DNA of 64,000 nucleotides from Rhodospirillaceae bacterium (lineage in GTDB: Bacteria; Pseudomonadota; Alphaproteobacteria; Bin65), in assembly GCA_011523655.1 (NCBI GenBank), contig WTGH01000018.1, forward strand, positions 62,001 through 126,000, written 5' to 3'. Made by a program: the position numbers and the translations under genes. The notes under the pieces were generated by a model. It saw only the letters and a list, made by a program, of their open reading frames with translations. It ran no database searches and was not told the origin of the DNA. Of the stretch, positions 10,607 to 64,000 are shown piece by piece; the first letter of the stretch is position 1, and every line of letters starts with the position of its first letter.

Positions 10607-12322
10607 CTACCAGGCGGCCACCACCTCGTCCATCGCGGCGTTGACTTCGGCGGCGTGCAGCCGGCCCGTCTTGTTGGTCGGCGCGAGCGGTTCGTGGAGG
10701 AAGAATTCGGGCAGTTCGTCGTCTTCGACCGTGAAGCCGGCCTGGCGATTGAATTCCTTCTCCAGCCTCAACGTCTCGATGCCGATCTCGTCGATGAAGT
10801 CCGGCGGTATGTCGATATTGTAGGAATCGTTGATCGCGTCGGCGATCAGCTTGCGGTTGACGTCCGTCACCGTGCGGCCGAACACGCACAGGCCGAGGGA
10901 ATCGGCGACCGCGCTGTTGATCTGGACCTGGTAGCTGCGCTCAGCCAGGTCCTTCATCGGCTTGCCGGCGCTGTCGTAGTGCGGCAGGTTGCCCGCCGTG
11001 TGGTCGGCGCCCTGGGCGGTCAGCATCATGGAGACGCCGGTCACCTCGATGACCCGTGGATCGTAGGCGCTGATCGCCTGCTTCTTGATCACCGGCACCC
11101 GCTCGATGCCGTAATGCGCGCCGACCCGGGCGGTGCCCTGGGCGAGGATGCGGCCGCGCTCGTTGCCGACGCGGATATCCTCCAGGGCCCGCTCCATGAA
11201 GGCGACGTCGCCGAATTCGGCCTCGCCGTGATCCATCAGGATCGCCAGCATGGCGCCGACCTCGATGGTATCGATGCCGAGATCGTTGGCGACGAAGTTG
11301 AGCCGGGCGATATCGTCCGGGTCCTTGATGCCGCAATTGGTGCCGAGCAGGCCGATGGTCTCGTATTCCAGCGGCGAGACGACCTCGTTGCCCTCTTCGT
11401 CGTTATAGATGTTGGAGCATTTGATCAGGCAGCCGGGCATGCAGGCGTGGGAGGGATCGCCGCCGCGCTCGACATTCTGGTTGTAGATAAAGTCGCCGCC
11501 CGCTTCGAATGTCTCCTCCTTCGGATCGACGATCTGGCCGGCACTGAAATTGCGCACCGGCAGGGCGCCGGTGGCGTTGGTGTAGTCGGCCATCATGGCG
11601 GTGCCGTAGGTCGACATGTTCTGGACCGCCGGCTGCTCGCGCAGCATCGCGCCGTATTGCTTGATCGCGCCCATCACCTTCGGGCGGTCGTGCAGCGGCG
11701 GCATCTTGGTCTTGTCGACGACGATCGCCTTGACCTTCTTGAGGCCCATGACGGCGCCGACGCCGCCGCGCGCCGCGATGCGCACCGGGCGGTTCTCGGC
11801 GTCGCTCACCGCGATGCCGGCGAGCAGGCCGCAATATTCGCCGACCGGGCTGCAGAGTGCGACGCTGGTCTTCCGGCCGTATTTCTCGTGCAGCAGGGCG
11901 GCTGCCTCGATATTGCCCTTGCCCATGTAGGGTTCGGCGGTGTCCCAGCTGAAGGCACCTTCCTTGTCGATATGGATGACGACCCAGTCGTCCGCCGCGC
12001 CGTGGAGCGTGAAGCCGGCGATCTGCAGATGGCCCATGGCGAGCGCGAAAGTGCCGCCGGCGTTGGATTCCTTGATCCCGCCGGTCAGCGGGCTCTTGCA
12101 GCCGATCGAGAGCCGGTTGGCGTTCGAGAAGTTGGTGCCGGCGAACGGCCCGGCGGAGAAGATCAGCGGGTTGTCCGGCGACATCGGATCGACCGTGGCG
12201 ACGCCGTCCTTCAGCAGGGTCTTGGCGATGAAATAGCGCCCGGCCTCGGCGAACTCCCGCCCTTTCAGCTCGCGGGATGTGACGGTGCGGGTCGCAAGAT
12301 CGATATCGAGATAATGGCGCAT
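10607..12322 (-). CDS. aldehyde:ferredoxin oxidoreductase family protein (W/Mo-bispterin)
   Basis: 571-residue member of the aldehyde ferredoxin oxidoreductase family, which carries a tungsten or molybdenum bis-pterin and a [4Fe-4S] cluster and oxidises aldehydes to acids. The N-terminal domain (RHYLDIDLATRTVTSREL, FSAGPFAGTNFSNANRLSIG) matches the family barrel. The cluster cysteines are in HACMPGCLIKCSN with a distant Cys in LLGTNCGIKDPDD. The start is the ATG at 12322; upstream in-frame residues do not resemble the family. It is somewhat short for the family (near 600). No ferredoxin or cofactor-synthesis genes are adjacent apart from the MOSC gene. Such enzymes are best known in anaerobes, so its presence in an apparently aerobic alphaproteobacterium is noteworthy. 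Confidence 0.87.
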   Translation of the reverse strand: MRHYLDIDLATRTVTSRELKGREFAEAGRYFIAKTLLKDGVATVDPMSPDNPLIFSAGPFAGTNFSNANRLSIGCKSPLTGGIKESNAGGTFALAMGHLQIAGFTLHGAADDWVVIHIDKEGAFSWDTAEPYMGKGNIEAAALLHEKYGRKTSVALCSPVGEYCGLLAGIAVSDAENRPVRIAARGGVGAVMGLKKVKAIVVDKTKMPPLHDRPKVMGAIKQYGAMLREQPAVQNMSTYGTAMMADYTNATGALPVRNFSAGQIVDPKEETFEAGGDFIYNQNVERGGDPSHACMPGCLIKCSNIYNDEEGNEVVSPLEYETIGLLGTNCGIKDPDDIARLNFVANDLGIDTIEVGAMLAILMDHGEAEFGDVAFMERALEDIRVGNERGRILAQGTARVGAHYGIERVPVIKKQAISAYDPRVIEVTGVSMMLTAQGADHTAGNLPHYDSAGKPMKDLAERSYQVQINSAVADSLGLCVFGRTVTDVNRKLIADAINDSYNIDIPPDFIDEIGIETLRLEKEFNRQAGFTVEDDELPEFFLHEPLAPTNKTGRLHAAEVNAAMDEVVAAW

Positions 12323-12497
12323 GACAGCCCCGATGGTTCCGGTCGTATGGCGGGATTTTAGCGGGTCGTGCCTGCGGTGTGTGGGGAAATTATGTCGTCC
12401 CCTCAATCGTCATATCGACCGAGCAGCGTTTGCGATTTTCGCCGGCCTGCAAACCGCGCTAAACAGAGCGCCCCGCACGACCGAGGAGCGACGCCCC

Positions 12498-13670
12498 ATG
12501 CCCGTCATCAACCGCATCGCCGATTTCCACGACGACATGACCGCCTGGCGCCGGGACATCCATGCCCATCCGGAAACCGCCTTCGAGGAGAACCGGACGG
12601 CCGATATCGTCGCCGACAGGCTGGAGAGCTTCGGCATCGAGGTGCATCGCGGGCTGGCGAGGACCGGCGTGGTCGGCCGGCTGAAGGCCGGCGCCTCGGA
12701 CCGGACCATCGGGTTGCGGGCCGATCTCGACGCCCTCAACCTGCTCGAAAAGAACGACTTCGACTATCGCTCGAAGCGCGACGGCAAGATGCACGCCTGC
12801 GGCCATGACGGCCACATCACCATGCTGCTCGGCGCGGCGCGCTACCTGGCCGAGACCCGGAATTTCGACGGCACCGTGCATTTCATCTTCCAGCCGGCCG
12901 AGGAAGGCGGCGCCGGCGGCAAGGTCATGGTGGACGAGGGGCTGTTCGAGCAATTCCCCTGCACGGCGGTCTACGGCATGCACAACTGGCCCGGCATGGC
13001 GCGTGGCCGGATCGGCGTGCGCACCGGCGCGATGATGGCCTCGGCGGACATGTTCCAGATCCGCATCCACGGCCGGGGCGGCCATGCCGCAATGCCGCAC
13101 CATGCCGTCGATCCGGTAGTCGTCGGCGCGCAGATGGTCGGCGCCCTCCAGACCATCGCCAGCCGCACCAACGATCCGCTCGACAGCGTCGTGGTCAGCG
13201 TCACCCAGTTTCACGCCGGCACGGCGGACAATGTGATCCCCGACGAGGCCGTGCTGTCCGGCACCTGCCGGGCGCTCTCGCCGGAAGGGCGGGACATGAT
13301 CGAGCGGCGCATGAGGGAGACGGTCGCGGGCATCGCCGCCTCTCACGGCATCGCCGCCGACCTGGACTACCGGCGCAACTATCCGGTGCTGGTCAACACC
13401 GCCGAAGAGACGCAGAGGGCCGCGCGCGCCGCCGCGAAGGTGGTCGGCGAGGCCAATGTCGCGGTCGACGATCCGCCGGTCATGGGCTCCGAGGATTTCG
13501 CCTTCATGCTCCAGGCCAGGCCGGGCAGCTATGTCTGGATCGGCAACGGCGTCGGCGAGGAAGGCGGCTGCATGGTGCACAATCCGCGTTACGACTTCAG
13601 CGACGAAATCCTGCCGGTCGGCGCGAGTTACTGGGCCGCGCTGGTGGAGCAGGAGTTGCCCCGGGGGTAG
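12498..13670 (+). CDS. M20-family amidohydrolase (hippurate-hydrolase-like)
   Basis: 390-residue metal-dependent amidohydrolase of peptidase family M20D (HipO/AmhX/IAA-amino-acid hydrolase group). Metal-binding motifs are HACGHDGHITMLLGAARYL, FQPAEEGGAGGKVMVDEG and YGMHNWPGMARG. The dimerisation domain contains GRGGHAAMPHHAVDP. The final metal-binding part is DDPPVMGSEDFAFMLQARPG. It probably removes an acyl group from an N-acyl amino acid. The ATG at 12498 is preceded by GAGGAG. The divergent oxidoreductase starts 175 bases upstream. Confidence 0.92.
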   Translation: MPVINRIADFHDDMTAWRRDIHAHPETAFEENRTADIVADRLESFGIEVHRGLARTGVVGRLKAGASDRTIGLRADLDALNLLEKNDFDYRSKRDGKMHACGHDGHITMLLGAARYLAETRNFDGTVHFIFQPAEEGGAGGKVMVDEGLFEQFPCTAVYGMHNWPGMARGRIGVRTGAMMASADMFQIRIHGRGGHAAMPHHAVDPVVVGAQMVGALQTIASRTNDPLDSVVVSVTQFHAGTADNVIPDEAVLSGTCRALSPEGRDMIERRMRETVAGIAASHGIAADLDYRRNYPVLVNTAEETQRAARAAAKVVGEANVAVDDPPVMGSEDFAFMLQARPGSYVWIGNGVGEEGGCMVHNPRYDFSDEILPVGASYWAALVEQELPRG

Positions 13671-54636: not shown

Positions 54637-55128
54637 CTAGAAGAACACCATCAGCAGCACGATGCCGGCCACGCCGCCCAGAATGAAGGCGATGGCGCTG
54701 ACGATGCCGGTCAGCGTCGCCCAGTCGGCGGCGCGCCAGGTCTGTCCTTCGATGTTAAACATGACCTCGGACCGGTCGCCGTCGCCGTCGACAAAGCGCT
54801 TCAGCGCGGTCTCGCTGCCATGCGCTTCCTTGATGGAAACGACGGTCACCAGAAACATCGTCAGGGCCGACGTCAGCGTGCCGATGCCGAATATCAACAC
54901 GGTCGCCAGCGCGAACCAGTGGAACACGCCCTCGACCCCGCCGGTCGTGGCGCCGCTCATGAAGCCGATGATCAGCGCCGTGCCGGCGCCGTTGCCGAAC
55001 AGCAGGAAACGCGTCGACTCGAGCAGATTCCGGAACATGATGTTCCGCCGCATGGAGACAACCTTGTAGCCCTCGCGAAGCCACTCCTCGGCGGTTTCCT
55101 CGCGTTCGAATTCGTTGATTTTCTTCAC
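54637..55128 (-). CDS. small polytopic membrane protein of the SPFH operon
   Basis: 163-residue protein that I do not recognise. A charged N-terminal segment (EFEREETAEEWLREGYKVVSMRRN) is followed by about four hydrophobic helices: FLLFGNGAGTALIIGFMSGA, FHWFALATVLIFGIGTLTSALTMFLVTVV and, after a short loop with RFVDGDGDRSEVMFN, TLTGIVSAIAFILGGVAGIVLLMVFF. Its ATG overlaps the stop of the binding-protein gene in an ATGA arrangement, so it is translationally coupled as the fifth gene of the operon. It may be a membrane partner of the SPFH proteins or of the permease. Confidence 0.78.
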   Translation of the reverse strand: MKKINEFEREETAEEWLREGYKVVSMRRNIMFRNLLESTRFLLFGNGAGTALIIGFMSGATTGGVEGVFHWFALATVLIFGIGTLTSALTMFLVTVVSIKEAHGSETALKRFVDGDGDRSEVMFNIEGQTWRAADWATLTGIVSAIAFILGGVAGIVLLMVFF

Positions 55129-56313: not shown

Positions 56314-57759
56314 TCATTTCTCTGACTTCGCAGTTGCGGTTTTCGCCCGCTTTTCTTTTTCCGGCTTTGCCTTCGGCGGTTTCCCCGGCTTTGCACCCGC
56401 CGTTTTTGCCGGCTTCGGCCCGGCTTTCCTTGCCCGGGCGGGTGCCTCATCGTCTTCTTCGTCGGTCCGGACGGTCGTTCGGGTCACCAGCGGCCGTTCG
56501 TTTTTCTCCGCCGATGCCGCGACGCCGGTCGACGCGACATGGCGATGGCTGAAGATGGAGAGATCGTCGAAGATCAGGGACCGCGGCCGGGCGCTGCTCA
56601 GATGGTGGCGTTCGCTGCCCGCTGCGTGAAGACGCCCGCTGATCAGGAAACGGTCCGCCCCGGTATTCTCGAAACCGTGGCGGCGTTTCTCGCTGGCGGT
56701 GGTCAGGGAACGGCGTCCGCCGACCAGCTGGTCTCTTACGGTCGCAGGCCGCCCGGAAGCGCCGGCCGATGCGACCCCAGCCGGTATGCGGCCGACACCC
56801 GGCACGAAGCCGTCGACCATATTGATGTCGATCGCCGAAGCATCGCCGGGATTGACCGCCGAAAGCGTCGCGTCGCGGAAAATACTGCGCATCCGCTGCC
56901 AATAGCGCGTCACCGTCACCGAAGAGGACTGTTTGCGATAGACGGTCAGCAACTCCGAAAACATCTTGGCGCTGCTTCCCGCCTGCATCAGACGCTCCTT
57001 CGCCCTGGCTCGGGCGTTCGTCACCACGGCCTCGGCCTGGCCCCTGCTGCGCGCCAGAAGCTGCTCCGTTCTCCGTCTCGCGTCGCTGACCGACTGGATG
57101 CTCTCCGCGATTGCGTCGCTGACGTCCCGGAACGCCGCGACGGTTTCCTCGATGGGCCGCAAATCGACGATATTGAGCGCCAGCAGTTCGATGCCGATAT
57201 CGTTGGCCTTCAGATAGGCCGTGGTGCTCTTGAACAGGTGCGCCTGGATGAGGTCGCGGTTGTTGGTAAAGATCAGGTCGATATAGTTCCTGCCCATAAT
57301 GTCGATCAGGCGTTCGCGCACGATCAGCGTCAGGACGGTTTCGGGATCGACCGTTGCGTAGAGGTAATTTCTCAGGTCGCCGATTTTGAACTGCAGCGCG
57401 ACATCGGCTTCGAACAGATTCGCGTCGCCCGAGAGTATCGAAAAGGAGACGGCGCCCTTTTTGCCCTGCGTCGCAACGTTGCTTCGGGTTATGCGCATGA
57501 CCTTGCGGACCCGGGCCCGTTCGACGAACGGCAGGGCGTAGTGCAGCCCCGGCGGAATTTTCAAGTTCACCACCTTGCCGAAACGGGTCAGCACCGCTTC
57601 TTCTTCTTTCTTTACGACGTAGAAGCCGCTCGCCAGGACCGCCAGCACCGCAAGGGCCGACAGCGACGCGGAGATGATCTTCCTCCGCGCGCCCAGAAAA
57701 TCGAAAACCGCGTAGATGGCGCGTGTACTCGGCGCCAGGTCTTCGGGAATTTCCGGCAT
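56314..57759 (-). CDS. HflK-like SPFH (band 7) membrane protein with basic tail
   Basis: 481-residue SPFH-domain protein. One N-terminal helix (IISASLSALAVLAVLASGFYVV) anchors it. The band-7 domain follows (EEEAVLTRFGKVVNLKIPPGLHYALPFVERARVRKVMRI, then LQFKIGDLRNYLYATVDPETVL). A helical region (AAFRDVSDAIAESIQSVSDARRRTEQLLARSRGQAEAVVTNARARAKERLMQAG) is the coiled-coil part typical of HflK. The last 150 residues are low-complexity and rich in Lys, Ala and Pro, unlike ordinary HflK. It probably pairs with the HflC-like product encoded just upstream. True FtsH-associated hflKC should be elsewhere in the genome. Confidence 0.85.
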   Translation of the reverse strand: MPEIPEDLAPSTRAIYAVFDFLGARRKIISASLSALAVLAVLASGFYVVKKEEEAVLTRFGKVVNLKIPPGLHYALPFVERARVRKVMRITRSNVATQGKKGAVSFSILSGDANLFEADVALQFKIGDLRNYLYATVDPETVLTLIVRERLIDIMGRNYIDLIFTNNRDLIQAHLFKSTTAYLKANDIGIELLALNIVDLRPIEETVAAFRDVSDAIAESIQSVSDARRRTEQLLARSRGQAEAVVTNARARAKERLMQAGSSAKMFSELLTVYRKQSSSVTVTRYWQRMRSIFRDATLSAVNPGDASAIDINMVDGFVPGVGRIPAGVASAGASGRPATVRDQLVGGRRSLTTASEKRRHGFENTGADRFLISGRLHAAGSERHHLSSARPRSLIFDDLSIFSHRHVASTGVAASAEKNERPLVTRTTVRTDEEDDEAPARARKAGPKPAKTAGAKPGKPPKAKPEKEKRAKTATAKSEK

Positions 57760-57771
57760 GGCTTCGGCCCG

Positions 57772-58698
57772 CTATTCCTGCGCCTTCGCCGGGCCCGGCG
57801 GCTGGCCCGGCGTCGGAACCGTCCTGCCGTCGAGATATTTGAACAGTTCGTTGTCGGCGGGCAGGATCAGGGTTGTGTTCTTGTCGATGATCGAATCGTA
57901 GCTGTCGAGCGCCCGGATGAACTTGTAGAAGGCCGGATCCTGGCGGTAGGCCGCGGACAGCGTTTTCAGGGCATCGGCCTCGGCGCGGCCGAGGATGGCG
58001 GTCGCTTCGGCATGGGCGGCCGCCATGATCTTCTGATGTTCGTTGATCGCGAACGCCTCGATACCGATGGCCCGTTCCTCGCCCTCGCTGCGGTAGCGCG
58101 CGGCGATGCGGGCGCGTTCGGAAATCATCCGCTTGATGACGCTGGGGCGGTTTTCCGCCGGCAGGGTGTATTCGACCAGTCCGGCGCGCAGCACATCGAT
58201 GCCGTAATCCGATGCGGCGACGGATTTGATCTGATCGAGAATTTCCCCGGCGATCTTGGCCATGTCCTCATGCGCCAGGCCGAGGCTGACGAAGGCGTCC
58301 CGCGACTTGTTGCTGACGACGATGCCGACGCTCGACCTGTACAGGTCGCTCAGCCGCTTCACGGCATTGGCTTCGGTGCGGATGGCCTCGACGAAACGAA
58401 CGGGATTGGCGACGCGCCACAACAGATAGCCGTCCACCAGGACGTTCTTCTGATCTTCGGTGATGAACTCCTGCTTGAGGCCCGTCAACGGGCGCACGCG
58501 CCGGTCGATCTTGTAGACCATCGAAATCGGCGTCGGCAGCTTGAAATGGAGGCCCGGACCTTTGACCGGCGGAACGATCCTGCCGAAATTGGTCAGGACG
58601 CCCTGCTCCGATTCGTCGATCACATAGTGTATGTCCCAGGCGAGGACGCCCGCGAACAGGACCGCGGCAGCGGCAGCGATGGTCTTGCGCCTGCTCAT
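57772..58698 (-). CDS. HflC-like SPFH (band 7) membrane protein
   Basis: 308-residue SPFH protein. A membrane helix (TIAAAAAVLFAGVLAWDIHYV) leads to ESEQGVLTNFGRIVPPVKGPGLHFKLPTPISMVYKIDRRV, the HflC-type domain start. A coiled-coil region (ISERARIAARYRSEGEERAIGIEAFAINEHQKIMAAAHAEATAILGRAEADALKTL) follows, and then the HflC-typical YRQDPAFYKFIRALDSYDSII with TTLILPADNELFKYL. The ATG overlaps the permease-fusion stop (ATGA), so the two are coupled. It starts 12 bases ahead of the HflK-like gene. Expected to form ring- or cage-like assemblies at the membrane. Confidence 0.88.
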   Translation of the reverse strand: MSRRKTIAAAAAVLFAGVLAWDIHYVIDESEQGVLTNFGRIVPPVKGPGLHFKLPTPISMVYKIDRRVRPLTGLKQEFITEDQKNVLVDGYLLWRVANPVRFVEAIRTEANAVKRLSDLYRSSVGIVVSNKSRDAFVSLGLAHEDMAKIAGEILDQIKSVAASDYGIDVLRAGLVEYTLPAENRPSVIKRMISERARIAARYRSEGEERAIGIEAFAINEHQKIMAAAHAEATAILGRAEADALKTLSAAYRQDPAFYKFIRALDSYDSIIDKNTTLILPADNELFKYLDGRTVPTPGQPPGPAKAQE

Positions 58699-61049
58699 GG
58701 CCGGCCTCCGGAAGTCTGGGTCTTGTGTCCGGCCTTGTCTGCGTGTCCCGGACGCTTGAGGCGCCGGTGCCCGGCGCCGGATGCGCCGTTCGAGTTTTTC
58801 CACACGGCGACCTTTTTCAGCGTTGCCTCATTGGGCACGATGATCTTGCTCCGGCCGGCGAGCGACGTCTCCAGCTTCTCGCGCCACAACATGTAGTGGA
58901 GCACGTCGGGCGCCTCCCGGACGGCGCCGGCAACGTCGCGGATCGCCTTGCTCTCCGCCGCCGACGTCACAGATCTCCGCGCGGCTTCGCCCTTCGCCTG
59001 CTGGACCTCGTAGGCCGCGTTGCCGTGGGCCCGGGGAATCAGCGAGACGGTCAGGCGCTGGGCGTTGACGATGATCCGCTCCCGGTCGTCCTGGGAACTC
59101 GAGACTTCGCGGAACGCGCTCATCGAATCGTTGACGGGGTTGACCGAGAGTAGATTGACTTTCACCAGTTCAATCGCGTCGAGCAGGGCGCTGTCCCCGC
59201 CGGCCATCAGGTTCTTGAACACCCGCCCGATATGGGACTGCAGTTGCGCCCGCTCGACGTTCAGCAACCTGTCGAGCGTCCGCCCTGCCACGAACTTGCG
59301 CAATTCCTTGCGGACATTGTCGCCGATCACCTGCTCCGGATTCGCGACCCGATAGTAGTAGGTGTAGGGGTCCTTGACCCGATACTGCACGTTCAGCGAC
59401 ATCGACATGAGGTTGACGTCGCCGGTGAGATATTCGTTCGCCGTGCCGCTGGTAACGGACTTCACCACCCGCACCGGCCAGCGATCCGCCTGCACGAAGG
59501 GCCAGGGCGCGAGATAGTGGAGGCCGGGCGGCAGATCGCGCCACACCACCGCGCCGAACAGCCGCCCGTAGCCGACCTCGCCGTGCCGCACGACCATGAG
59601 GCCGCTCGCCAGGAAGGCGACGACCAGCGCGGCCAGGATGCCGCCGCCGGCCGGCGTGCGTGGGCGGAACAGGCCCCTGACGGGCTCGTTGCCCGTGAGC
59701 CGGGCCCACCAGCGCCCCAGCGGCGTCGTTACCGGGCGCAGGTTGGAAAACAGGTCCTGATAGCCGGTCTTGAACGCGCCGGCCCGGAAGCGCCAGAGCA
59801 TGAGGGCGAAGAGACCGAATGCACCGGCCCATTGCAGGGTCAGGAGCGCCGGCGAATCGGACGCGTCGAGATTGACCGCAAGCGACAGGCCGAAGGCGAT
59901 CATCAGGAGGTCGACGGCGATGCCCAGCGCCAGCGTTACGGCGATCACGGAACCGACATAGACCGAGGCGAACCGCGCGCCGAACTGGCTCGCGACGATG
60001 GCGATGGTGCCGGTATTGGTCGCCGGGCCGGTCATCAGGAAGATGAGTGCAGCGCCCGGGCTGAAACCCTTGGCGACGAGGGCCGCGGCGATCGGGGTGC
60101 TGGCGGAGGCGCAGATGTACAGCGGGATCCCGACGAGGACCATGACGGGATAGGAGAGCCAGCGGGCGTATTCGTAGGCCATGAGGTCGCCGGGAATGGC
60201 CAGGTAGATGACGCCGCCCAGCAGCACGCCGACCAGCAGCGCGAAAAGAATGTCGTCCGCGACCTCGATGAAGCCGTAGCGCAGGATGTGTCTGCAGACG
60301 GTGCTGAAGGAGAGGCCGCTGAGATCGCGCCCGCCGACCGTCGGCGGCTCGGTGCGGACTTCGGGAAGCGACAGGAACTCCCGGTAGAATTCGGGCTTGA
60401 TCCAGGTCATCGACCGGGCGCGCCCGACGCCCTGGTTCATACGCGCCAGCCAGGTCACGAAGAAGGCCTTGAAGGCGGCCGGGCTGATGTAGCAGTCGTC
60501 GTCGCCCGGGATCAGCGTCTTGTGGCTGTGATCGTGGCCGTCGTGGTCGTGGGAATGGTCGTGGCCGTGATGGTCGTGATCGTGGTGGTCGTGATCGTGG
60601 TCGGCGTCGCCGGCCGCCGGCTCGTCGGCGTCGGCGCCGCGGATCATCCCGATGCAGAAAATGCCCGCCACGACGCCGGTAATGAAGCTGATGAGCGGCC
60701 GGACCACCGCGGCCACGGGGCCGAAGAACGCGTTGGTGACGAGGATCGAATCCGCGCCCGTCTCCGGAGCGGTGATCAGGAACGACATGCAGGACGAACG
60801 CGAGGCCCCCTTGCGCCGCATTTCGGCGACGACCGGGACCACGGAACAGCTGCACAGCGGCATCGGCACGCCGATGGCGGCGCTGGACGCGACGGATTTC
60901 AGGCTGTCATGGCGCAGCCATTTCAGGACCGCGTCCCGCGAAATGAAGACGTGAATCAGCCCTGCCAGGAACAGGCCGAGCAGAAGCATCGGCCCGAGCA
61001 GCAGAAAAGAAGACCAGAGAAAATCAAGAAAAAGGATTAAGTTTTCCAC
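58695..61049 (-). CDS. YraQ/SO_0444-type permease fused to an SPFH domain
   Basis: 784-residue fusion. Residues 1-390 are a DUF318/ArsP_1 (YraQ, SO_0444 Cu/Zn) permease: LLLGPMLLLGLFLAGLIH, the hallmark GVPMPLCSCSVVPVVAEMRRKG with the CxC pair near 66-68, and the second-half motif LYICASASTPIAAALVAKGFSPGAALIFLMTGPATNTGTI. A His/Asp-rich loop (about 150-176, repeated HDHDHHDHDHHGHDH) binds metal. A further helix at about 400-420 and another at 470-487 (ILAALVVAFLASGLMVV) lead into a band-7 domain from about 488 to 740 (EVGYGRLFGAVVWRDLPPGLHYLAPWPF). GTG 61049 was chosen because GGGAAAG precedes it and the family starts there; GTG 61085 is possible. No stop interrupts the join. Confidence 0.87.
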   Translation of the reverse strand: MENLILFLDFLWSSFLLLGPMLLLGLFLAGLIHVFISRDAVLKWLRHDSLKSVASSAAIGVPMPLCSCSVVPVVAEMRRKGASRSSCMSFLITAPETGADSILVTNAFFGPVAAVVRPLISFITGVVAGIFCIGMIRGADADEPAAGDADHDHDHHDHDHHGHDHSHDHDGHDHSHKTLIPGDDDCYISPAAFKAFFVTWLARMNQGVGRARSMTWIKPEFYREFLSLPEVRTEPPTVGGRDLSGLSFSTVCRHILRYGFIEVADDILFALLVGVLLGGVIYLAIPGDLMAYEYARWLSYPVMVLVGIPLYICASASTPIAAALVAKGFSPGAALIFLMTGPATNTGTIAIVASQFGARFASVYVGSVIAVTLALGIAVDLLMIAFGLSLAVNLDASDSPALLTLQWAGAFGLFALMLWRFRAGAFKTGYQDLFSNLRPVTTPLGRWWARLTGNEPVRGLFRPRTPAGGGILAALVVAFLASGLMVVRHGEVGYGRLFGAVVWRDLPPGLHYLAPWPFVQADRWPVRVVKSVTSGTANEYLTGDVNLMSMSLNVQYRVKDPYTYYYRVANPEQVIGDNVRKELRKFVAGRTLDRLLNVERAQLQSHIGRVFKNLMAGGDSALLDAIELVKVNLLSVNPVNDSMSAFREVSSSQDDRERIIVNAQRLTVSLIPRAHGNAAYEVQQAKGEAARRSVTSAAESKAIRDVAGAVREAPDVLHYMLWREKLETSLAGRSKIIVPNEATLKKVAVWKNSNGASGAGHRRLKRPGHADKAGHKTQTSGGRP

Positions 61050-61222
61050 CAAGCTTTCCCGCGCAGTTTGCGCCCAAAAAAACACTATGTCGCGACAGCG
61101 GGAGCGATGTCAACAATTGCCGCGCGAGGACTATTTCCATTCGCCGAAACCGAAAAGAAATTCAATTAGTTGCAAAAAACCGACCGCCATGTTGCAGGAA
61201 ATTTATGCATTGTAGTTTTGCG

Positions 61223-61245
61223 ATTCTGTTATATTATAAAATTTA
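61223..61245. promoter_or_regulatory. Zur-box candidate in the znuA/SPFH-operon intergenic region
   Basis: The core TGTTATATTATAAAATTT agrees with 17 of the 22 fixed positions of the E. coli-type Zur palindrome (GAAATGTTATA-N-TATAACATTTC), counted by eye. The centre TTATA-T-TATAA is exactly symmetrical. On the minus strand it contains TATAAT (61238-61233), a good -10 pointing at the permease-SPFH operon; TTGTCC or TTGCAG elements lie a little upstream. Binding of a zinc-loaded repressor would block this promoter. The site lies about 174 bases from the proposed operon start and 720 bases from the znuA start. Confidence 0.7.
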
Positions 61246-61430: not shown

Positions 61431-61569
61431 CTGCCCAGCGTTTTCCGGCCCAGCGTTTTCCGGCCCAGCGTTTTCCGGCCCAGCGTGTTCCGGCCCGGTG
61501 TTTTCCGGCCCGGTGTTTTCCGGCCCGGTGTTTCCCGGCCCGGTGTTTCCCGGCCCGGTGTTTCCCGGT
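61431..61569. repeat. 15-bp tandem repeat (about nine copies)
   Basis: Eight full copies run from 61441 to 61560, with part copies at each end. Units 1-3 are TTTTCCGGCCCAGCG, unit 4 is TGTTCCGGCCCGGTG, units 5-6 are TTTTCCGGCCCGGTG and units 7-8 are TTTCCCGGCCCGGTG. The orderly change along the array shows stepwise local duplication. The 15-base length keeps several frames open as five-residue repeats, but no convincing gene uses them. There are no spacers, so it is not a CRISPR array. It lies between the Zur-like box and znuA. Confidence 0.92.
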
Positions 61570-61699: not shown

Positions 61700-61735
61700 A
61701 AAAAGTTATGTTATCTTGTAATGAAATAATTTTCT
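61700..61735. promoter_or_regulatory. AT-rich island, possible second Zur-like site upstream of znuA
   Basis: After the GC-rich repeat array, an AT-rich stretch contains GTTATGTTATCTTGTAATGA. The part TGTTATCTTGTAATG keeps 10 of 14 fixed positions of the central Zur palindrome by eye, weaker than the box at 61223. It lies about 240 bases ahead of the znuA start. A perfect 14-base palindrome, CCGGAATATTCCGG, follows at 61801-61814. Other parts of the 61086-61968 gap show no gene. Confidence 0.35.
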
Positions 61736-61968
61736 TGTCCGGCATTTTTCATTATCAGGGACAGACGATATTGGCTTGCGCAGGGAGCCAGTTCTCGAAT
61801 CCGGAATATTCCGGTGTACGGGCGCCGACTAGATCCGCCTCACGGCGGGAATGGCGGAGCATTCGGCATCGGTCCTGCCGGTCGGAGTGACTTGCGAACC
61901 GGCGGAAGTTCTGATCGAATCCGGCCGGGATCGATACGAGCCTTTCGGCCGGAATGGTACGGGCAGCC

Positions 61969-62907
61969 ATGAATAAAGGTCTCGTTTTCGCGGTACTCTT
62001 TGCCGGAGCGGCTCTGCACGCGCCGCAGGCGCGCGCCGCCGAAGTCGTCGTCAGCATCAAGCCGATCCATTCCCTCGTCGCTGCTGTGATGGGCAAGACC
62101 GGCGAGCCGCGCCTGCTGCTGGGCGGCGGCGTGTCGCCGCACACCTATCGGATGCGCCCGTCCGAGGCCCGGGCGTTGACCGGGGCCGATCTCATCGTCT
62201 GGATCGGCAGGGATTTCGAGAAATTCCTCGATCGCCCGATCGCCGGTCTCGGCTCCGGCGCGAGGGTCGAGACCTTGCGCGACGCAGCGGGGATGCGGCT
62301 GCTGCCCGCCCGCGGCGGCGGCTTGTGGGCCGAAGGCCACGACGAGCCCCATATCGACGAGCGCGCGGCACCCGGCCACGATCACAGCGGGTTCGACATG
62401 CATATCTGGCTCGACCCCGCCAACGCCCGCCGCATTGTCGAGGTCGTGGCAGAGTCGCTCGTTCGCATCGATCCCGGCCGCGCCGACACCTATCGAAAGA
62501 ATGCCGCGGCGACGCGAGAGCGGATCGCCGCCCTCGAGGAATCGTTGCGAACGCAACTGGAGCCGGTCCGGCGGCGTGCGTTCATCGCCTTCCACGACGC
62601 CTTCCAGTATTTCGAGTTCGCGTTCGGCCTCAACAGCAAGGGGGCCGTCGCCGTCGATCCGGCACGGCCGCCCGGCGCCAGGCGGCTCGCGGAGTTGCGC
62701 GCCGCCCTTGCCGATTACGATATCGGTTGCGTGTTTTCCGAACCGCAGTTCGAGCCGGATCTCGTTCGGGCCTTTGTCGAGGGGACCCGAATCGGGACGG
62801 GAACGCTCGATCCGCTGGGCTTCGGCGTCGAGCCGGGCCCGGACGCCTGGTTCGCGATCATGCGCGGCCTGGGCGACGCCGTTGCGGACTGTCTCGGCAG
62901 GCCCTGA
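61969..62907 (+). CDS. znuA: zinc ABC transporter binding protein
   Basis: 312-residue periplasmic zinc-binding protein of the cluster A-I family. The signal peptide (NKGLVFAVLFAGAALHAPQARA) ends before AEVVVSIKPIHSLVAAVMGKTGEPRLLLGGGVSPHTYRMRPS. Zinc-ligand positions are visible: His in SPHTY, His in DMHIWLDP, His in AFHDAFQYFEF and Asp in TGTLDPLGF. The His-rich loop is short (EGHDEPHIDERAAPGHDHSG). ZnuB and ZnuC are not adjacent; a Na/Pi cotransporter gene follows instead. ATG 61969 starts the signal peptide; GTG/ATG at 61954 is possible. It is divergent from the permease-SPFH operon and probably under the same zinc control. Confidence 0.92.
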   Translation: MNKGLVFAVLFAGAALHAPQARAAEVVVSIKPIHSLVAAVMGKTGEPRLLLGGGVSPHTYRMRPSEARALTGADLIVWIGRDFEKFLDRPIAGLGSGARVETLRDAAGMRLLPARGGGLWAEGHDEPHIDERAAPGHDHSGFDMHIWLDPANARRIVEVVAESLVRIDPGRADTYRKNAAATRERIAALEESLRTQLEPVRRRAFIAFHDAFQYFEFAFGLNSKGAVAVDPARPPGARRLAELRAALADYDIGCVFSEPQFEPDLVRAFVEGTRIGTGTLDPLGFGVEPGPDAWFAIMRGLGDAVADCLGRP

Positions 62908-63015: not shown

Positions 63016-64000
63016 ATGGCTCCCGAGGCCCGGACATCCGGCTGGTACCGGATCCTTTCCTGGCTCGTCCTTGCGGCGGCACTCTACGCTTTGCTCGTGG
63101 CGGTCGGCGTCGTCGGCAAGGGCTTCCGCCTGGCGTTCGGCGGTGCGGAGGGGGTTGGGGCGCTGTTCGAATTCGCGACCAACCCCTTCATCGGGCTGGT
63201 TCTCGGTATCCTTGCAACCGCCCTGATCCAGTCGTCCAGCACGGTCACGTCGATCATCGTCGGCCTCGTGGCGGGCGGTATGCCGATCGCCATGGCGATC
63301 CCCATGGTGATGGGCGCCAATGTCGGAACGACGGTGACCAACACGCTTGTCAGCTTCGGCCATCTCAAGCGGCCGGCGGAGTTCAGAAAGGCGTTTGCCG
63401 CCGCCACGGTTCACGACTTTTTCAATCTCCTCAGCATCGCGATCTTCCTGCCTCTGGAGCTCGCCTTCGGCCTGCTCGAGAAAATGAGCGGCGCCGTGGG
63501 CCATGCCGTCGAAAGCATCGGGACGGTCGACGCCGGCGGAAAGGGCGTCTTCAATACCGTCATCGGCGCCGGGACCGAATTCGTCGAGTCGCTGACGGCG
63601 CCGCTGCCCGACGTCTGGGCCGGTTCGGTCCTGATCGTCGGCGGAATCGCACTGATCCTGGTGTCGATCCTGTATCTCGGCAATGCGCTGAAGACCGTGT
63701 TCGTGGGCAGAGCCAGGAGAATCTTGCAGGCGGCGGTCGCCAGGGGTCCGGTGACCGGGATCTGCTCCGGCACCCTGGTCACGGTGCTGGTGCAATCGTC
63801 GTCCACCACCACGAGCATCATCGTGCCCCTGGCGGGAAGCGGCGTGATCGGGCTGCGTCACGCCTATCCGTTCACCCTCGGCGCCAACATCGGCACGACC
63901 GTGACCGCGCTGCTCGCCGCGACGGCGATCGTCGGCCCGACCCATGCCGTCGCGCACCAGATCGCGATTGCGCATTTTCTCTACAATCTGCTGGGCGTCG
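63016..64000 (+). CDS. Na+/phosphate cotransporter family protein, 5' part
   Basis: The frame opens at an ATG with GGAGAG ahead and stays open to the right edge, so the first 328 residues are visible. After one N-terminal helix come the two inverted Na/Pi-cotransporter repeats, each with the QSSS hallmark: ATALIQSSSTVTSIIVGLVAGG with GANVGTTVTNTLVSFGH, and TVLVQSSSTTTSIIVPLAGSG with LGANIGTTVTALLAATAIVG. This is the NptA/PF02690 family. It begins 108 bases after znuA and may be read with it. A role in phosphate uptake is likely, but PhoU-type C-terminal domains, if any, are beyond the window. Confidence 0.9.
   Translation, partial: MAPEARTSGWYRILSWLVLAAALYALLVAVGVVGKGFRLAFGGAEGVGALFEFATNPFIGLVLGILATALIQSSSTVTSIIVGLVAGGMPIAMAIPMVMGANVGTTVTNTLVSFGHLKRPAEFRKAFAAATVHDFFNLLSIAIFLPLELAFGLLEKMSGAVGHAVESIGTVDAGGKGVFNTVIGAGTEFVESLTAPLPDVWAGSVLIVGGIALILVSILYLGNALKTVFVGRARRILQAAVARGPVTGICSGTLVTVLVQSSSTTTSIIVPLAGSGVIGLRHAYPFTLGANIGTTVTALLAATAIVGPTHAVAHQIAIAHFLYNLLGV

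What the first reader, a model, noticed from the sequence alone, without database searches (positions are those of the whole stretch)
58695..61049. Metal permease and SPFH/band-7 domain fused in one polypeptide
Seen: a continuous frame joins a YraQ/SO_0444-type permease (CSCSVVP motif, His/Asp-rich loop) to a transmembrane-anchored SPFH domain. Known: the permease family is tied to Cu/Zn/As transport, while SPFH proteins (HflK, HflC, stomatin) form membrane rings or microdomains; I know of no described permease-SPFH fusion. Inference: the SPFH part may cage or cluster the transporter, making a scaffolded metal channel.
Basis: partly seen in the sequence, partly recalled or inferred. Interest (0 to 1): 0.92.

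Follow-up and report, generated by a model that had tools for sequence, protein, structure and literature searches.

The report
Metal transporter fused to membrane cage
A bacterial protein joins a metal-ion transporter to a subunit of a cage-forming membrane protein in one chain; the same kind of joining has happened to at least two other, unrelated metal transporters, which suggests that a poorly understood class of membrane cages works by enclosing metal transporters, here probably for zinc.

Summary
Window 58695-61049 (-) is one open frame: an SO_0444/ArsP_1 permease with a His/Asp-rich loop, a basic linker, a TM anchor and an HflK-like SPFH domain. It is not an assembly artefact: 14 genomes in two phyla carry it in one frame, with purifying selection on both halves. 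It heads a five-gene operon: fusion, HflC-like, second HflK-like, substrate-binding protein, small membrane protein. It is divergent from znuA, and a Zur-box-like site lies upstream. Only five loci in the whole genome match that pattern; two others are a second znuA beside a zur-like gene, and znuCB.

Such fusions recur. A complete P1B-ATPase is fused to HflK in 30 of 61 sampled relatives of an acidobacterial genome, and a CDF transporter to HflK on an Aquibium plasmid, always as first gene of an HflK-HflC-HflK' triplet. An unfused Pseudomonas triplet sits with P1B-ATPase HmtA; published work shows Zn-dependent Zur binding to its promoter. Most likely this is a zinc-starvation SPFH assembly carrying its metal permease covalently. 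Direction, metal and cage geometry are untested. I found no published transporter-SPFH fusion. New variant of a known kind, high interest.

The parts
58695..61049 (-). Fusion gene, 784 aa from GTG 61049: SO_0444/ArsP_1 metal permease + HflK-like SPFH protein
   Evidence: conserved in 14 genomes
59913..61031 (-). PF03773 ArsP_1 permease domain with CSCSVVP and CASAS motifs
60518..60600 (-). His/Asp-rich stretch in a long loop, predicted cytoplasmic
   Evidence: crude topology
59652..59780 (-). Basic linker at the join (R+K 7, D+E 2), predicted cytoplasmic
59589..59651 (-). Transmembrane anchor preceding the SPFH domain
59082..59558 (-). PF01145 SPFH/Band 7 domain, HflK-like, predicted periplasmic
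   Evidence: E. coli HflK 7vhp, 1.6e-21
57772..58698 (-). HflC-like SPFH protein; its ATG overlaps the fusion's stop codon (ATGA)
   Evidence: (TIGR01932 154 bits, cut-off 134.4)
56314..57759 (-). Second HflK-like SPFH protein (HflK'), 481 aa
55125..56312 (-). Peripla_BP_6 substrate-binding protein with N-terminal signal/anchor; no ABC transporter gene beside it
54637..55128 (-). Small multi-TM protein of unknown family, conserved in the operon; start overlaps the end of the preceding gene
61223..61241 (-). Zur-box-like site TTTTATAATATAACAGAAT, about 190 nt upstream of the fusion start
61705..61727 (+). Second AT-rich palindrome GTTATGTTATCTTGTAATGAAAT in the znuA/fusion intergenic region
61954..62907 (+). 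Divergent znuA, zinc substrate-binding protein
   Evidence: znuA directly upstream on the same strand as the fusion in L036 and L040
63016..63999 (+). Na/Pi cotransporter (cut by the window end), a recurrent neighbour
   Evidence: follows the small TM gene in L036 and L039

Best explanation
The gene encodes a metal permease covalently built into an SPFH assembly. In known HflKC, HflK and HflC form a periplasmic dome over the inner membrane. Here one of two HflK paralogues carries an SO_0444-type permease at its N terminus. The operon also supplies HflC, the second HflK', a periplasmic binding protein and a small membrane protein. I propose that HflK-permease, HflC and HflK' co-assemble, so that several permeases sit in the membrane under one dome, and that the operon is switched on by Zur when zinc is scarce to move zinc (or a similar metal) between a confined periplasmic space and the cytoplasm, with the His-rich loop as a cytoplasmic metal buffer. 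SHOWN: fusion, operon, conservation, recurrence with other transporter families. SUPPORTED IN SILICO: Zur control, periplasmic SPFH topology. INFERRED: co-assembly, enclosure, metal, direction (uptake slightly favoured).
For: Fusion in 14 genomes of two phyla, with the whole five-gene operon kept in the loci examined in full. HflC-like partner above the HflC cut-off. The SPFH part aligns to E. coli HflK, and the partner to HflC, of the solved HflKC-FtsH complex; HflKC is 12 heterodimers forming a cage round FtsH (PMC12005517). Separate fusions at the same position: complete P1B-ATPase-HflK and CDF-HflK. The tree places HflK and HflK' of the Pseudomonas-like triplets together (98/94), and those of the ArsP and CDF triplets together with weaker support (90/80, 93/94), so at least some triplets seem to have arisen separately. 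Zinc link: divergent or co-directional znuA; the box pattern hits 5 loci in 4.27 Mb, among them znuA2 near a zur-like gene and znuCB; sites exceed dinucleotide shuffles in 8 of 9 fusion promoters. The P. aeruginosa triplet PA2437-2439 with HmtA is induced by zinc depletion (PMC4542158, PMC11761036, PMC9431628) and Zur binds the PA2439 promoter in a Zn-dependent way (PMC8531726). ZIP and P1B-ATPase genes follow the operon in Latescibacterota locus L199.
Against: SO_0444 family members are annotated as Cu/Zn exporters (PMC3219624), which sits oddly with induction under zinc starvation. The box pattern was written with the fusion site in view, and two of its five loci (formamidase; SBP/LysR) are not obvious zinc genes. 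The Latescibacterota locus L041 has no good site, nor do the stretches upstream of znuA tested in L036 and L040. AlphaFold2 failed (pLDDT 34), so neither fold nor assembly was modelled. hmtA mRNA was not repressed by zinc in one study (PMC8531726), and deleting P. aeruginosa SPFH genes had little effect in the tests reported (PMC13086221). The fusion's SPFH part scores below the HflK cut-off (121.1 against 159.4).
Confidence: 0.6

Rival explanations
1. Caged exporter: the permease keeps the SO_0444 efflux activity and the SPFH dome receives exported Cu/Zn in a confined periplasmic space, for detoxification or for loading periplasmic metalloproteins.
For: SO_0444 model met above cut-off; SO_0444 is needed under Zn or Cu stress (PMC3219624); the CDF and P1B families fused elsewhere are typically exporters (general knowledge); PCuAC and SCO genes follow the Aquibium triplet.
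Against: znuA association and Zur-box-like sites; the Pseudomonas triplet is induced by zinc depletion. Both fit starvation better than excess.
Confidence: 0.25
2. Protease-control module: the triplet is an FtsH modulator used in zinc starvation to protect or degrade membrane proteins, and the fused transporter is simply a client tethered for quality control.
For: HflK/HflC are FtsH modulators and FtsH is a zinc protease; authors read PA2437-2439 this way (PMC9431628, PMC11761036).
Against: The genome also holds another HflK-HflC-like pair on contig C42. Recurrent fusion to three unrelated metal-transporter families is hard to explain by general protease control.
Confidence: 0.12
3. Tethering without a closed cage: the SPFH domain only clusters the permease with the binding proteins in a membrane microdomain.
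For: SPFH proteins organise detergent-resistant membranes (papers listed); no structural model was obtained here.
Against: HflC and two HflK types are co-encoded in the complete operons examined, as expected of an HflKC-like cage.
Confidence: 0.2
4. The fusion is an artefact or a chance read-through of two genes.
For: Split or frameshifted copies exist: G553 (frameshift in the linker), G550 (contig break). Stand-alone permease orthologues exist in G548, G549, G554, G555.
Against: 14 intact copies in separate assemblies and two phyla; purifying selection on both halves. The stand-alone orthologues have no SPFH genes in the stretches read.
Confidence: 0.02

Closest known systems
E. coli HflK-HflC (HflKC-FtsH complex; PDB 7vhp, 7wi3)
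   Same: TM anchor + SPFH domain + helical region; HflK-like and HflC-like partners in one operon; predicted periplasmic placement
   Different: First subunit carries a polytopic metal permease; a second HflK-like gene is added; zinc-gene context; another HflK-HflC-like pair is kept elsewhere in the genome; SPFH part below the HflK equivalog cut-off
SO_0444 family Cu/Zn efflux transporter (NF033936; PF03773)
   Same: Permease half scores above cut-off, CSCSVVP motif, His-rich loop
   Different: Known members stand alone; here a C-terminal SPFH protein is fused, and the regulation looks like zinc starvation
P. aeruginosa PA2434-PA2439 locus (HmtA + PaFlo5-7)
   Same: SPFH triplet next to a metal transporter; Zur-bound promoter; induced by zinc depletion (literature)
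   Different: In the Pseudomonas-like loci read here (L131, L132) the transporter is a separate His-rich P1B-ATPase, and the first SPFH protein carries an unidentified 6-TM N-terminal region
P1B-ATPase-HflK and CDF-HflK fusions (acidobacterial genomes; Aquibium plasmid WP_072608301.1)
   Same: Metal transporter fused to the N terminus of the first HflK of an HflK-HflC-HflK' triplet
   Different: Unrelated transporter families; found here, and the plasmid record annotates its copy only as HflK

Membership tests
SO_0444 Cu/Zn transporter (NF033936) | Whole-protein score above the curated cut-off | tested here: met
   319.1 against 300 bits; stand-alone orthologue L195 313.3
SO_0444 Cu/Zn transporter (NF033936) | Cu/Zn efflux activity | not testable with these tools
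   No transport assay possible
HflK (TIGR01933) | Score above the equivalog cut-off | tested here: not met
   121.1 against 159.4 bits; it still aligns with PDB HflK at 1.6e-21 including the TM region
HflK (TIGR01933) | Single N-terminal TM helix | tested here: not met
   7 to 9 predicted TM segments, by method
HflC (TIGR01932), second gene | Score above cut-off | tested here: met
   154 against 134.4 bits; groups with HflC in the tree
HflKC-FtsH complex | Assembly of HflK/HflC heterodimers enclosing FtsH | not testable with these tools
   AlphaFold2 of the fusion failed; no complex prediction offered
Zur regulon | Zur operator in the promoter | tested here: inconclusive
   Good site at 61223-61241, shared in type with znuA2 and znuCB; 2 of 5 genomic loci not zinc genes; no binding assay
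HflK-HflC-HflK' triplet with N-terminal membrane domain on the first subunit | Gene order and a polytopic region before the first SPFH domain | tested here: met
   Scan of the loci held, complete P1B fusions, tree

The most novel reading that the evidence does not exclude
Caged metal transporters are a general class: HflK-HflC-HflK' assemblies in several phyla have captured metal transporters of at least three unrelated families (ArsP_1/SO_0444, P1B-ATPase, CDF) by separate gene fusions, and the periplasmic SPFH dome acts as a controlled vestibule for metal exchange.
Probability: 0.45. Interest if true: 0.93.

Novelty: new variant of a known kind. Interest (0 to 1): 0.83.

Why it matters
What SPFH cages do apart from FtsH control is a long-standing question. 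Covalent fusion of a metal transporter to HflK, repeated with unrelated transporter families, gives natural single-chain evidence that some of these cages enclose transporters. It makes the idea directly testable, gives a reading of the zinc-regulated Pseudomonas triplet, and adds an architecture to zinc homeostasis that I did not find described.

Tried and rejected
AlphaFold2 on 8 fusion proteins gave pLDDT 34 and was not used. The palindrome RTTATRTTATNNYRTAAYATAAY was first taken as a Zur signature, but its other genomic sites lie by a formamidase and an SBP/LysR pair, so it was down-weighted. Long SPFH frames in G399, G484 and G486 read as flotillin-type proteins with one or two TM segments, or as antisense frames, not transporter fusions; the long G063 and G054 frames looked antisense or inflated too. 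A sample of 398 Pseudomonadota genomes returned mostly canonical hflKC pairs among the loci read. The CDF-HflK fusion was not seen again in 385 alphaproteobacterial genomes at E 1e-62, a strict cut-off without a positive control. Literature searches found no transporter-SPFH fusion; the library holds open-licence papers only. No solved structure matched the permease half.

Full report
1. Observation. The frame 58695-61085 (-) holds PF03773 ArsP_1 followed by PF01145 Band_7 and matches the SO_0444 Cu/Zn transporter model above its cut-off. Comparison with relatives puts the start at GTG 61049, giving 784 aa. The CSCSVVP motif, the His/Asp-rich loop and a TM helix before the SPFH domain are all there.

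2. Not an artefact. The same uninterrupted fusion occurs in other species of the genus (4 of 7 including the own genome), in other alphaproteobacterial MAGs, and in Latescibacterota, one copy lying on a 2.87 Mb contig. I count 14 genomes with an intact frame. Codon comparison shows purifying selection on both halves; the linker is looser, on few sites. Latescibacterota also offer a natural contrast: four genomes hold a stand-alone permease orthologue, about 61% identical, that ends where the fused linker begins, with a P1B-ATPase about 1 kb downstream and no SPFH genes in the stretches read.

3. Operon. Behind the fusion follow an HflC-like gene (ATGA overlap), a second HflK-like gene, a Peripla_BP_6 binding protein and a small membrane protein, all abutting or overlapping. 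This order is kept in the complete loci examined, although the third gene is frameshifted in L039. znuA is divergent in the window and lies directly upstream on the same strand in L036 and L040. In Latescibacterota locus L199 a ZIP-type gene and a P1B-ATPase follow the operon.

4. Recurrence. The first gene of other HflK-HflC-HflK' triplets also begins with a polytopic membrane domain. In a Terriglobia MAG it is the end of a P1B-ATPase. In 30 of 61 sampled genomes around that MAG the query, ATPase end included, is matched in frames of mostly about 1000 aa; four that I read in full hold E1-E2_ATPase, HAD and Band_7 domains in one frame, with CPC, DKTGT and GDGVND-type motifs, and one exceeds both the P1B and the HflK cut-offs. 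On an Aquibium oceanicum plasmid the first gene is CDF + HflK, also above both NCBIfam cut-offs. In Pseudomonas-like genomes it carries a 6-TM region I could not identify, and a His-rich P1B-ATPase of the HmtA kind follows.

5. Evolution. In a 35-row tree the middle genes group with HflC and the outer genes with HflK. The two outer genes of the Pseudomonas-like triplets pair with good support; those of the ArsP and CDF triplets pair with support just under the usual limits. The simplest reading is repeated duplication of HflK and repeated capture of a transporter, but deep branches are weak, so a single old triplet with later swaps is not excluded.

6. Zinc. The own genome has a zur-like gene near a second znuA, and a znuCB operon. 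A core pattern written from the Zur consensus and the fusion site matches five loci in 4.27 Mb with a control of one: the fusion promoter, znuA2, znuCB, a formamidase and an SBP/LysR intergenic region. Eight of nine fusion promoters exceed dinucleotide shuffles (p 0.022 or less). Published work on the Pseudomonas triplet adds experimental weight: induction under zinc depletion (PMC4542158, PMC11761036, PMC9431628) and Zn-dependent Zur binding (PMC8531726). I did not compare L131/L132 with the PAO1 sequences directly, so their identity with PA2437-2439 rests on gene order and the HmtA-like neighbour.

7. Mechanism. Predicted topology puts the linker and the His-rich loop in the cytoplasm and the SPFH domain in the periplasm (crude). 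With the HflKC cage as template (PMC12005517), the permease would lie in the membrane under the dome. If HflK and HflK' shared the twelve HflK positions of such a cage equally, six permeases per cage would result; that number is pure inference. Direction is open: gene context favours uptake or redistribution in zinc starvation, family annotation favours efflux.

8. Verdict. Observation confirmed; interpretation partly supported and extended. New variant of a known kind, with a real chance of a general class of caged transporters.

Noticed in passing
window 61440-61568: Tandem array of 8.6 copies of a 15-bp GC-rich unit (GTTTTCCGGCCCGGT) between znuA and the fusion promoter.
   Followed up: no
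L131:9341-11431 (-), L132:6764-8923 (+), L045:2562-4487 (+): First SPFH protein of Pseudomonas-like and Verrucomicrobia triplets has a 5-6 TM N-terminal region; for L045 no family model matched it, for L131/L132 it was not scanned.
   Followed up: partly
L179:6999-7994 (-) and neighbours (own genome C4): Second znuA near a zur-like gene and a 554-aa protein with a His/Lys-rich N-terminal part, possibly an outer-membrane zinc protein.
   Followed up: partly
L170 (own genome C30:43882) and L171 (C56:21210): Zur-box-like palindromes upstream of a formamidase and between an amide-type SBP and a LysR gene; either false positives or unexpected regulon members.
   Followed up: partly
window 63016-63999; L036; L039: A Na/Pi cotransporter is a recurrent neighbour of the fusion operon; reason unknown.
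   Followed up: no
L091:9497-11191 (+): A PpiC-type peptidylprolyl isomerase sits between the CDF-HflK triplet and a P1B-ATPase on the Aquibium plasmid.
   Followed up: no
L190:6874-7878 (-), L132:8902-9972 (+): HflC-like middle subunits with a very His-rich N terminus, predicted cytoplasmic, where the transporter is a P1B-ATPase; in the ArsP fusion the His-rich stretch lies in the permease loop instead.
   Followed up: partly
L039 about 11296-12752: Third operon gene is frameshifted in this MAG; sequencing error or decay.
   Followed up: no
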